Source of the DNA: Opitutaceae bacterium
Lineage (GTDB): Bacteria > Verrucomicrobiota > Verrucomicrobiia > Opitutales > Opitutaceae
DNA: 33,862 nt
Assembly: GCA_027485045.1 (NCBI GenBank)
Contig: JAIXRU010000257.1
Coordinates: 1-33,862, forward strand
Direction of reading: 5' to 3'
The notes under the pieces are model-generated. The model was not told the origin of the DNA and ran no database searches. It worked only from the letters and a program-made list of their open reading frames with translations. Shown piece after piece: positions 3,863 to 31,164 of this stretch (the first letter of the stretch is position 1; each line of letters begins with the position of its first letter). The position numbers were made by a program, and so were the translations under genes.

Positions 3863-6800
3863 CTAGGGGCTGGTGATGCGGAGGCGGAGGAAGCGGCGGG
3901 GGGTGGAGGGGGTGAGGTCGGTGGCGTCTACGACTACGACATCGCCGGGGGTGTTGTCGGGGCCGGTGGAGCTCCAGATCACCGACCAGGGGCCGGCGGG
4001 GGTGTCGGCGGCTTCGACGGCGTAGGTGAGCGCGGGGTCGGCGATGCGGGGGAAGGTCAAGGTAAGCCGGGGCGCGGGCTCGGGTTCGATGTGGATCAAC
4101 TCTGAACTCAGCGCGGGGGTGGAGACGGAGCTGAGCGGCAACGTGCCCAGTGCGTATTCGAGGAGGTTGGGGTAGGTGTCTCCGTCGGGGTCGGCGGCGT
4201 CGGCGGCGGTGCCGGTGGCGGCCGGGGTGGCGAAGTGGGTCTGGCGCCAGGCCTGGAGCGGGGTGGAGAAGCTGATGTTGTCGAAGGTGGCGTTGACGGC
4301 GGCTCCGCCGGTGCGGGGCACCACGCAGAGGCCGACGCTCGACTGGGACCCGCCGAGGATGTTGGACCGGGCGGAGCCGATTTCGGTCCAGGTGAGGCCG
4401 TTATCCGACCAGAAGGTGGTGAAGGTGTCGCCCTTGCGCACGAGGCGTATCCATTCGGGTATGCCACGATTGGAGAGGGTGCCATAGAAAAAATTGGTGT
4501 TGGTGCTGGCACCGGAAGTGGCGGTCTTGTGTTGGTAACTGACGGCGCCGCCGTTGTTGCGGATGAGGTAAACGGCGCTGTAACGGGAGCCGGTGCTGGT
4601 GGTTTCGCGGAAGATGATGCCGGCCTTGGCCGAGGCGTCGGTCGAGGTGAGGGCGGCGACGCGGGCGGTGAAGACGCCGTCGCCGGACCAAGGTTGGGAA
4701 ACGTAGGTGAAGGAGTCGTTGTTGCCGGTCCAGAGGTCGCCGGTGGTGCCTCCGGTGGATGCGCCGCCGCTGCCGGCGATGGTGAAGCTGGTGGGTGAGT
4801 TGACCGTGGCAGTGCCAGCGGGGACTCCGGTGTAGGGGTTGATCTGGCGGAGGGTCCAGGGGGCGGACAGGGTGGGCGCGGTGACCTGGACAACGAAGGT
4901 GGCAGTGGAGGCGTTGCCCGCTGCGTCGGCGGCGCTGACGGTCACGGTGGTCTGGCCGATGGGGAAGAGGGAGCCCGAGGGCGGGCTGGCGGTGGCGGTG
5001 GCGTTGCCGGTGAGGGCATCCACGGCGGAGACGTCGAAGGTGACGAAGGCCCCGGAGGAGCCGGTGCCGGGCACGGTGAGGTTGCCGGGGGTGGTTATGA
5101 CGGGGCCGGTGGTGTCGGGGGTGGGGTCGGGTTGGTAGAGGCGGAGCTCGGCGAGCTGGAGGCTGGTGGCGTCGCCGTTGTTGGCGGTGACGACGAGGCG
5201 GTAGGTGGCGAAGCTGGCGGGGTTAATAAAACCGTAGGTTAGGGTCTGGCTGCGGGTGGTGAAAACCTGGGCGGTGCGGGTATCGAGGACCACCCAAGTG
5301 AGGCCATCGGCGGAGCCTTCGAGCCGCCAGTCGCGCGGGTCGCGGGCGGGGGAGTCGGGGGCGGAGACGACCTCGTAGCGGGTGACGCGGGCGGTGGCGG
5401 AGGCGGGGAAGGCGAGTTGCAGGGTGCCGGTGGTGACGCCGGTGGCGGTGCGCCAGACGGTGGCGGTGGAGCCGTCGAAGGCGAGGGTGGCGGGGTTGGC
5501 GGGATTGGCGGAGGAGGCCAAGGCGGGGCCGGTGGTGGGAGTGGCGAGCAGGGGCAGGGTGGTGGTGGAGTTGGTCTCCTCGGACCAGTGTTCGCCGGCG
5601 GTGTTTACGGCGTGGAAACGGAAGTAGTAGCGGGTGGCGGGGGCGAGGTCGGCGGGGGTGTGGGAAAGGTGGCCGGAGTCGGGCTGGCCGAGGGTGACGA
5701 CACGTTGCCAGGCGGCGGGGTCGTCGCCGCCGTCGGTGGTGCCCCAGTAGAGGCGGACGGTGGCGTTGGCGTCGAACTGAGGATAGATGAGGGTGCCGGT
5801 GAAGGTGGCGGTGTTGGCTCCGACGGAAGAGGCGGAGCCGGTGACGATGAAGGGAGTCCAGACGCGCACGGAGGGATCGGTGGCGCGGGTTTCGTCGGGG
5901 CGGAGGCCGGCGAGTTCGAGCGGGACGGGCACGAAGCCGGGGAGGTCGCGGTAAACGGTGGCGTCGGGCCGGAGGCGGAGATCGTCGTCGGCGTAGTCGA
6001 TGAAGCCGGGGTCGGAGGCGTAGCCGAGGTTGGGGCCGGACTGGAGGGTGGCGGCGTTGGAAGTGGCGACGACGTGGGTGTTGGTCGTGGTGTTGTTGGT
6101 AATCCGATACCAGAGGAAGTGGCTGGAGAGGGGGCGGTAGGAAATGTTGTTTTCGATGCGGCCGCCGGTGGCGCTGTGGAAGGAGGCACCGGAGCGGGTG
6201 TTGACCAGGACATTGTTGTAAACCTGGAGGCCCATCGGGAGGGTGGTGTTGGCCTCGCCGCTGGTGGTGTGGGTGTTGCTCCAGAAGCCGTAGCCGCGCT
6301 GGGCGGTGGCGGGGGTTTTGAGGTTGATGGTGTTGCCGTAAACAGGGGTGCGGACGTGGTCCATGTCGTTGTAAACACCTTCGCCGAGGGGGCTCTCAAA
6401 AAGGTGATTGTAGCGAATGACGGTGCGGAAATCGGCGTTGCGGCCGAAGCGGTAGATGGCGCCGAGATCGTTGGAAATGCGGGTGAAGTCGGAGACCTCG
6501 TTGTATTCGATGACGTGGCGGTGGCCGTTCCAAAGGATGCCGGCGTGGGGGGAGGTGCGGAGATCGTTGTGCGCGACGCGCATGCCTACGGTGGATACGC
6601 CCCAACTGCCCATCGGGCCGCCGTAGCCGACATCGATGGCGGCCTGGTAAACGCGCACGACCTCGCCGAAGGAACGGAAGCGGTTGTTGACCGCGAAGTG
6701 GTCGGCGGGGACGGGGGTGCCGTCGGTGGCGAGCGAGCCGCCGCGGAGCATGACGCCGCCGGAGGCGAGTTTCTCGAAGTCGCTGGAGAGCACGCCGTGG

Positions 6801-31164: not shown

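What the first reader, a model, noticed from the sequence alone, without database searches (positions are those of the whole stretch)
3863..31164. A shared C-terminal tail ends three unrelated giant secreted proteins exactly at their stop codons: candidate sorting or anchoring signal
Tails of the 2135-, 1263- and 1637-residue proteins (2005-2135, 1140-1263, 1511-1637) share a WRxxHF start, a DPDGD...NLLEYALGT core, an LTFxRARxDxTYxVEASS segment and a terminal RRFLRLRVTSP. The upstream domains differ (PATR/beta-helix, esterase, beta-helix/PATR). It lacks the hydrophobic anchor and basic end of PEP-CTERM, and a PEP-CTERM protein sits in the same window. A strict stop-adjacent position suggests a targeting function, as in other C-terminal sorting domains. 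The function is an inference.
Basis: partly seen in the sequence, partly recalled or inferred. Interest (0 to 1): 0.82.

Follow-up and report, generated by a model that had tools for sequence, protein, structure and literature searches.

The report
Shared end-domain on verrucomicrobial secreted proteins
Many different secreted proteins of Verrucomicrobiota bacteria end in the same small folded domain with a calcium-type loop; it is probably a handle for placing or holding proteins at the cell surface, but that role is still untested.

Summary
Three minus-strand genes end exactly at the stop codon in one homologous tail of about 125 residues; two decayed copies lie in the same window. The tail is a large family: 47 matches in this genome (5 in the window), 78 in the complete genome IMCC26134, and at least one in 74 of 115 sampled Verrucomicrobiota genomes. 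In IMCC26134, 60 of 62 copies reaching the domain's end stop within 5 residues of the stop codon. AlphaFold2 gives a compact domain (pLDDT 97): helix, calcium-type loop, helix, and a six-stranded FN3-like sandwich with nothing after the F-like strand. No Pfam or NCBIfam model covers it. Passengers are mostly signal-peptide-bearing extracellular enzymes and adhesin-like proteins.

A few copies sit at the N-terminus, directly behind the signal peptide, so the domain is terminal, not strictly C-terminal. No secretion gene tested tracks it specifically: T9SS cargo is nearly absent, genomes with only weak T2SS-secretin hits still carry it, and the exosortase link is not significant within one genus after controlling for genome size. 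Only its first half was seen at internal positions. I favour an uncleaved surface-attachment or sorting module over a cleaved signal. Function is inferred.

The parts
3863..4258 (-). tail domain 1: last 131 residues of the 2135-aa protein, plus stop
16512..16886 (-). tail domain 2: last 124 residues of the 1263-aa esterase-like protein, plus stop
   Evidence: AlphaFold2 model
26251..26634 (-). tail domain 3: last 127 residues of the 1637-aa GH141/Ig/PATR protein, plus stop
4157..4192 (-). calcium-type 12-residue loop of tail 1 (DPDGDTYPNLLE, departs from the pattern at position 6)
16785..16820 (-). calcium-type 12-residue loop of tail 2 (DPDGDGVSNLLE)
26533..26568 (-). calcium-type 12-residue loop of tail 3 (DTDRDGASNILE)
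3866..3898 (-). terminal (F-like) strand region RRFLRLRITSP, tail 1
   Evidence: strand position by alignment to the model of tail 2
16515..16547 (-). terminal (F-like) strand region RRFLRLRVTSP, tail 2
26254..26286 (-). terminal (F-like) strand region RRFLRLRVTAP, tail 3
   Evidence: strand position by alignment to the model of tail 2
13442..13777 (-). decayed stand-alone tail copy with one in-frame TAA
10666..10815 (-). remnant of the first (calcium-loop) half of a tail, inside a 150-aa ORF
4259..10270 (-). passenger 1: signal peptide (by eye), PATR-like region and GH141-like beta-helix (by similarity to passenger 3), Ig-like and F5/8C-like (below Pfam cut-off), HYR, domain shared with passenger 2
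16887..20303 (-). passenger 2: signal peptide (by eye), esterase-like domain (hits below cut-off), FN3 domains, DUF1349-like domain (hit below cut-off)
26635..31164 (-). passenger 3: signal peptide (by eye), GH141 insertion domain and beta-helix, FN3-like, Ig, PATR/beta-strand repeat

Best explanation
The tail is a terminal attachment or sorting module of exported proteins. Shown or predicted: it is one homologous domain of about 125 residues in Verrucomicrobiota, with a helix, a DxDxDGxxNxxE loop, a second helix and an FN3-like sandwich whose last strand corresponds best to FN3 strand F. It sits at an end of the mature protein, usually the C-terminus and occasionally right after the signal peptide. 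Inferred: the protein leaves the cytoplasm through Sec, the loop binds Ca2+ and rigidifies the domain outside, and the domain docks onto a common partner at the outer surface (an outer-membrane protein or matrix polysaccharide), so that many different enzymes are held near the cell. If strand G is truly absent, the edge of the last strand (RRFLRLRV) is a plausible docking site. Because N-terminal copies exist, the module probably stays on the protein rather than being cut off.
For: Position. Own genome: 38 of 47 matches end within 5 residues of a stop, 2 more run on to the stop beyond a truncated match, 5 are N-terminal. Relatives: of 69 copies scoring at least 50 bits, 66 end within 5 residues and 68 within 10. 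Best matches of 30 genomes: 31 of 31 copies within 5. G085: of 31 distinct copies reaching the model's end, 29 within 5 and 30 within 10. IMCC26134: 60 of 62 within 5. No copy reaching the last strand was internal in these sets. Passengers include GH44, PL8, CE2/GDSL, a non-specific endonuclease, GH141 and PhoD. Signal-peptide-like start 61 of 77 against 89 of 297 control ORFs. The loop fits the calcium pattern in 59 of 63 rows; D23 and N31 invariant. AF2 pLDDT 97, pTM 0.87; an N-terminal copy is predicted with the same core and no strand in the 29 residues after its last strand. Modularity: 1 of 29 GH141-type homologues fetched has the tail.
Against: No partner was found, and nothing here shows localisation, Ca2+ binding or anchoring. 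The exosortase association (44 of 44 genomes with at least 5 tails; Fisher p 7e-9) is confounded: within one genus the partial correlation given genome size is 0.23, permutation p 0.43. The only 4 genomes with no GspD match also have no tail, so some T2SS link is not excluded. A terminal FN3-like domain could equally be a binding or purely structural cap. Coordinates of the models could not be read, so a free last-strand edge is inferred; the N-terminal helix may cover it. FN3 kinship is modest: VIA Z 6.9, under the level of 8 that its notes call possibly just a common arrangement; hhalign probability 27%, the last-strand pairing appearing only when the alignment was made to extend.
Confidence: 0.45

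Rival explanations
1. A cleavable C-terminal export signal that works like the T9SS CTD but uses an unidentified outer-membrane translocon.
For: Beta-rich terminal domain, near-universal stop adjacency, signal peptides and diverse passengers.
Against: N-terminal copies behind the signal peptide. SprA_N in 0 of 115 genomes, though no control genome rang. Por_Secre_tail above its cut-off in 1 of 115 genomes and without a match in G000. None of 63 tails matched Por_Secre_tail in Pfam, or any T9SS-named model in NCBIfam, at E<=0.1.
Confidence: 0.17
2. A carbohydrate-binding or otherwise ligand-binding module that keeps extracellular enzymes on their substrate, with no role in sorting.
For: Passengers are largely carbohydrate-active or adhesin-like. 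FN3-like and calcium-loop modules are common on such enzymes (general knowledge). Either-end placement suits a binding module.
Against: Also on a nuclease and a phosphatase. Binding modules are often also internal or tandem (general knowledge); no internal copy reaching the last strand was seen.
Confidence: 0.22
3. A passive stability cap that protects the protein end, spread by gene duplication and domain shuffling.
For: Window proteins share other modules too; decayed copies suggest turnover; either-end placement.
Against: A cap does not need an invariant loop and a near-invariant F-x-R-L strand, and most homologous GH141-type passengers fetched do without it.
Confidence: 0.16

Closest known systems
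Fibronectin type III domain (PF00041)
   Same: Strand order A-B-C-C'-E-F inferred from the model. Top structural rows for residues 49-124 are small beta-sandwich domains, several titled FN3 (best Z 6.9, pectate lyase PelI residues 23-93, 70 aligned, 2.8 A; that this part is an FN3-like domain is recalled). Weak profile similarity to FN3 domains of the same loci.
   Different: No strand after the F-like one in either model, a helical calcium-loop half in front, and no Pfam fn3 hit among the 63 tails at E<=0.1.
TSP3-type / EF-hand calcium repeat (PF18884, TSP3_bac)
   Same: The loop D-x-D-x-D-G-x-x-N-x-x-E; 3 of 63 tails hit TSP3_bac, best 7.9e-6. First-half copies occur inside three IMCC26134 proteins.
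   Different: The 22-position TSP3_bac model can cover only the loop part of the tail.
T9SS type A sorting domain (Por_Secre_tail, PF18962)
   Same: Terminal beta-rich domain on many different exported proteins.
   Different: No profile hit among 63 tails, no match in this genome, and N-terminal copies exist.
PEP-CTERM / exosortase
   Same: C-terminal tag on exported proteins in the same genome; a PEP-CTERM protein lies in this window.
   Different: No PEP motif, hydrophobic helix or basic end in the tail; about 125 residues and folded.

Membership tests
T9SS type A CTD | match to the family profile | tested here: not met
   0 of 63 tails matched PF18962 at E<=0.1, and no T9SS-named NCBIfam model was among the 9 families hit
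T9SS type A CTD | SprA/Sov translocon encoded in the same genomes | tested here: inconclusive
   SprA_N in 0 of 115 genomes, but no control genome rang
T9SS type A CTD | always C-terminal (recalled) | tested here: not met
   N-terminal copies after signal peptides
PEP-CTERM | PEP motif, transmembrane helix, basic end | tested here: not met
   tails end in a charged beta strand; no PEP-CTERM model among the family hits of 63 tails
Type V autotransporter | C-terminal beta-barrel domain (PF03797, accession recalled) | tested here: not met
   no such hit in the three window proteins at E<=1
FN3 domain | sandwich closed by a last strand G | tested here: inconclusive
   six strands; seven strand elements, the extra one lying between C' and E and none after the F-like strand; FN3 strand assignment is inferred, and coordinates could not be read
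FN3 domain | match to the Pfam FN3 profile | tested here: not met
   no fn3 hit among 63 tails at E<=0.1; weak hhalign match to local FN3 domains
TSP3/EF-hand calcium loop | D-x-[DN]-x-[DN]-G-x-x-[ND]-x-x-[ED] | tested here: met
   59 of 63 rows of A3; window tail 1 is one of the 4 that depart
TSP3/EF-hand calcium loop | actual Ca2+ binding | not testable with these tools
   needs purified protein

The most novel reading that the evidence does not exclude
A phylum-wide sorting system in which an incomplete Ig/FN3-like fold (last strand missing) at the protein's end is recognised at the outer membrane by strand complementation: one unidentified receptor supplies the missing strand and holds dozens of different secreted proteins per cell.
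Probability: 0.12. Interest if true: 0.85.

Novelty: new variant of a known kind. Interest (0 to 1): 0.56.

Why it matters
Verrucomicrobiota encode many exported enzymes, and how these are placed at the surface is poorly understood (general knowledge). One terminal domain with about 40 to 60 copies in the three genomes searched singly, unnamed in the libraries searched, gives a direct handle: it predicts which proteins are handled together and offers bait for the partner. It would also let annotators name a domain found in 74 of the 115 Verrucomicrobiota genomes sampled.

Tried and rejected
T9SS: SprA_N 0 of 115 with no control ringing. Por_Secre_tail had matches in 4 of 115 genomes, above its cut-off in one, G048, which also has many tails. 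Rejected as a membership claim; a T9SS-like mechanism is kept as a rival.

T2SS: GspD has E<=1e-3 matches in 111 of 115 genomes, 28 of them over the curated cut-off. All 14 genomes of genus g14 have only weak ones (best 2.7e-18 to 2.4e-32), yet 12 of the 14 carry tails, which speaks against canonical T2SS dependence. Against that: the 4 genomes without any GspD match also have no tail.

Exosortase: strong raw association, but within g14 it is not significant once genome size is controlled.

Tail/PEP-CTERM swap test on passengers: 0 of 30 PhoD loci have the tail and one ends in a PEP-CTERM-like sequence (two of the 30 have open 5' ends, so an N-terminal copy there could be missed). 1 of 29 GH141-type homologues has the tail, one of them (L262) running off its stretch. 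No clear swap. One esterase homologue has the tail (L276); another (L275) runs off its contig, so nothing can be said of it.

PATR proteins by end type: the pattern was too strict (5 proteins) and the loci had been picked by tail, so it is not used.

Other phyla: the genome-contig scan returned 51 loci, 50 with verrucomicrobial-type titles (one Pontiellaceae) and one labelled WWE3, which I suspect is misbinned. Its patterns came from the window tails, so distant relatives elsewhere could be missed. No match in plasmids.

Weak Pfam hits to the 63 tails not pursued: DUF3999 in 10 (best 3.6e-4), F5_F8_type_C in 3 (best 3.4e-4) and ten others in at most 2 each. T9SS CTD structures did not appear among the 50 rows shown; this excludes nothing. 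For the second model some Tencon rows aligned to their far end, but at 5 to 10 A through a low-confidence stretch.

Literature: seven searches of an open-licence library showed no description in the listings and abstract starts. I saw passages only of PMC4960237 and PMC3048395.

Rows dropped before counts: copies under 50 bits (8 of them at E<=1e-3, listed: three first-half copies inside proteins, two second-half or short matches at a stop, two identical matches cut by the end of their loci, and one match that stops 2 residues from the stop). One search counted two G085 copies twice and one cut fragment; one search gives the corrected count.

Full report
Observation. The three ORFs are as reported. 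Their last 131, 124 and 127 residues align over the whole length and stop at the same point. Two decayed copies lie in the same window: 13442-13777 with one in-frame TAA and the first half of a tail at 10666-10815. The passengers are mosaics that share some modules, so 'unrelated' is only partly right within this window. Across the family they are diverse: seven relatives that I picked for a Pfam scan gave GH44, PL8, CE2/GDSL, a non-specific endonuclease, Laminin-G and FN3 or Ig domains, next to beta-helix/GH141 and PhoD.

Family size. The three-row profile finds 47 matches in this 3.45-Mb, 84%-complete draft genome, five of them in the window. The 63-row profile finds 38 in the same-genus genome G085, 78 in the complete genome IMCC26134, and at least one in 74 of 115 Verrucomicrobiota genomes (where per-genome counts are lower bounds because at most 37 candidates were scored). 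A scan of one genome per species returned 51 loci, 50 of them in records with verrucomicrobial-type titles.

Position. Own genome: 38 of 47 matches end within 5 residues of the stop (this includes the decayed copy at 13442 and a fragment on C12). In two more (C48, C222) the match is cut short but the protein runs on to the stop. Five are N-terminal (C227's is a weak match). One is the half-remnant in the window and one lies at a contig edge (tally from the printed rows). Relatives: of 69 copies of at least 50 bits, 66 end within 5 residues and 68 within 10, the exception being N-terminal (L065, a PhoD). In the 30 loci, which are best matches of their genomes: 31 of 31 within 5. G085, 30 of its 38 matches fetched: of 31 distinct copies reaching the end of the model, 29 within 5, 30 within 10 and one N-terminal (L201). 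IMCC26134: 30 loci plus 38 stretches covering the remaining matches gave 70 domains at distinct places; 62 reach model position 115 or beyond, of which 60 end within 5 residues, one has 14 residues left because the envelope ended early, and one is N-terminal. Some of these 62 start late in the model: of 59 distinct sequences, 52 start at position 25 or before. The sets overlap slightly (L116 is the window; L070-L072 and L074 are in IMCC26134; L117 is in G085). Internal matches are of the first half only (W..YFG plus calcium loop): L041, L063, and eight in three IMCC26134 proteins. L077 carries the two halves far apart in one protein, the second at its end. The domain is therefore terminal, overwhelmingly C-terminal, sometimes directly after the signal peptide.

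Export. With a crude signal-peptide rule, 61 of 77 tail proteins with a closed 5' end pass, against 89 of 297 other long ORFs on the same loci. By eye, about ten of the 16 failures have a visible signal peptide, and the others look broken or uncertain at the 5' end.

Structure. AlphaFold2 with 63 sequences gives pLDDT 97 and pTM 0.87: helix 2-9, loop, helix 31-37 and six strands ending at 116-122. The loop fits the calcium pattern in 59 of 63 rows; D23 and N31 are invariant, and F116, R118 and L119 of the last strand are kept in 62, 61 and 59 of 63. Structural neighbours of residues 49-124 are small beta-sandwich domains, several titled FN3 (best Z 6.9, PelI, 70 residues at 2.8 A); Foldseek gave none at E<=0.001. 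In the Tencon chain 4lpw_A (93 residues) the match covers residues 2-77, leaving the last part unmatched. A profile comparison with FN3 domains from these same loci matches strands B to C' by default (probability 23%, P 9e-4); when made to extend, it puts the tail's last strand over FN3 strand F (probability 27%, P 6.7e-4; reversed control P 0.31). A second model, for an N-terminal copy with 29 following residues, has pLDDT 89, one extra strand between C' and E, and no strand after the F-like one. So the sandwich appears to lack strand G; coordinates could not be inspected.

Known families. No Pfam or NCBIfam model covers the tail. In Pfam the weak hits are DUF3999 (10 of 63, best 3.6e-4), TSP3_bac (3 of 63, best 7.9e-6), F5_F8_type_C (3 of 63) and ten others in at most 2 each. 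In NCBIfam, Amuc_1099 matches 25 of 63 (best 1.1e-4) and, in the one member whose position is shown, covers the loop. A PDB sequence search gave nothing better than E 0.59.

Partner genes. SprA_N 0 of 115, no control ringing. Por_Secre_tail in 4 of 115, above cut-off in 1 (G048, tail-rich), none in G000. GspD in 111 of 115; all 14 genomes of genus g14 have only weak hits and 12 of them carry tails, while the 4 genomes with no GspD match have no tail. Exosortase: tail+/exo+ 65, tail+/exo- 9 (each with at most 3 tails), tail-/exo+ 14, tail-/exo- 27; 44 of 44 genomes with at least 5 tails have it. Within g14 the raw difference is p 0.007, but tails follow genome size (rho 0.83) and the partial correlation is 0.23, p 0.43, with only 14 genomes. 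The exosortase link may therefore be shared lifestyle rather than a dedicated pair.

Modularity. Of 29 GH141-type homologues fetched, 1 has the tail; of 30 PhoD loci, 0 have the tail and one ends in a PEP-CTERM-like sequence. The tail is an add-on, not part of the catalytic unit.

Reading. I favour an uncleaved, calcium-dependent surface-attachment or sorting module. 'Exported', 'terminal', 'one predicted fold' and 'calcium-type loop' are shown or well supported; 'binds calcium', 'docks on a surface partner' and 'the last strand's edge is the docking site' are inference. N-terminal copies speak against a cleaved T9SS-type signal; the lack of internal copies that reach the last strand speaks against an ordinary binding module.

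Noticed in passing
window 21877-24219 (- strand): A GH3 enzyme is split into two adjacent ORFs (N-terminal domain 22969-24219; C-terminal domain plus Fn3-like 21877-22965), so the gene looks broken or is an assembly error.
   Followed up: partly
window 10558-16315: Two decayed tail copies flank a GH95 gene (11089-13398), suggesting lost tail-bearing genes in a carbohydrate-degradation cluster.
   Followed up: partly
L114 (C265) and L096 (C153): Giant paralogues with the tail at the N-terminus are 72% identical over about the first 760 residues and then show no significant similarity in the part held; the layout recalls polymorphic-toxin-like proteins (recalled, not tested).
   Followed up: partly
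own C153:40282, C143:154, C226:5701: Three N-terminal-type genes share the residues VRPSFMS at and just before the likely start, hinting at recent 5'-end duplication.
   Followed up: no
L300, L301 and L308 (IMCC26134): Three proteins (frames of 1694, 1731 and 1126 aa) carry internal half-tail repeats (W..YFG plus calcium loop); the first two also end in a tail.
   Followed up: no
window 33074-33649: PEP-CTERM protein confirmed by PF07589 and TIGR02595; three exosortase matches in this genome.
   Followed up: partly
G048:C28:171-431 (L315): Single Por_Secre_tail match above cut-off in a tail-rich Verrucomicrobiota genome; may be contamination or rare T9SS-like cargo.
   Followed up: no
63 tails of alignment A3: 10 of 63 tails weakly match DUF3999 (best 3.6e-4), a Pfam family of unknown function.
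   Followed up: no
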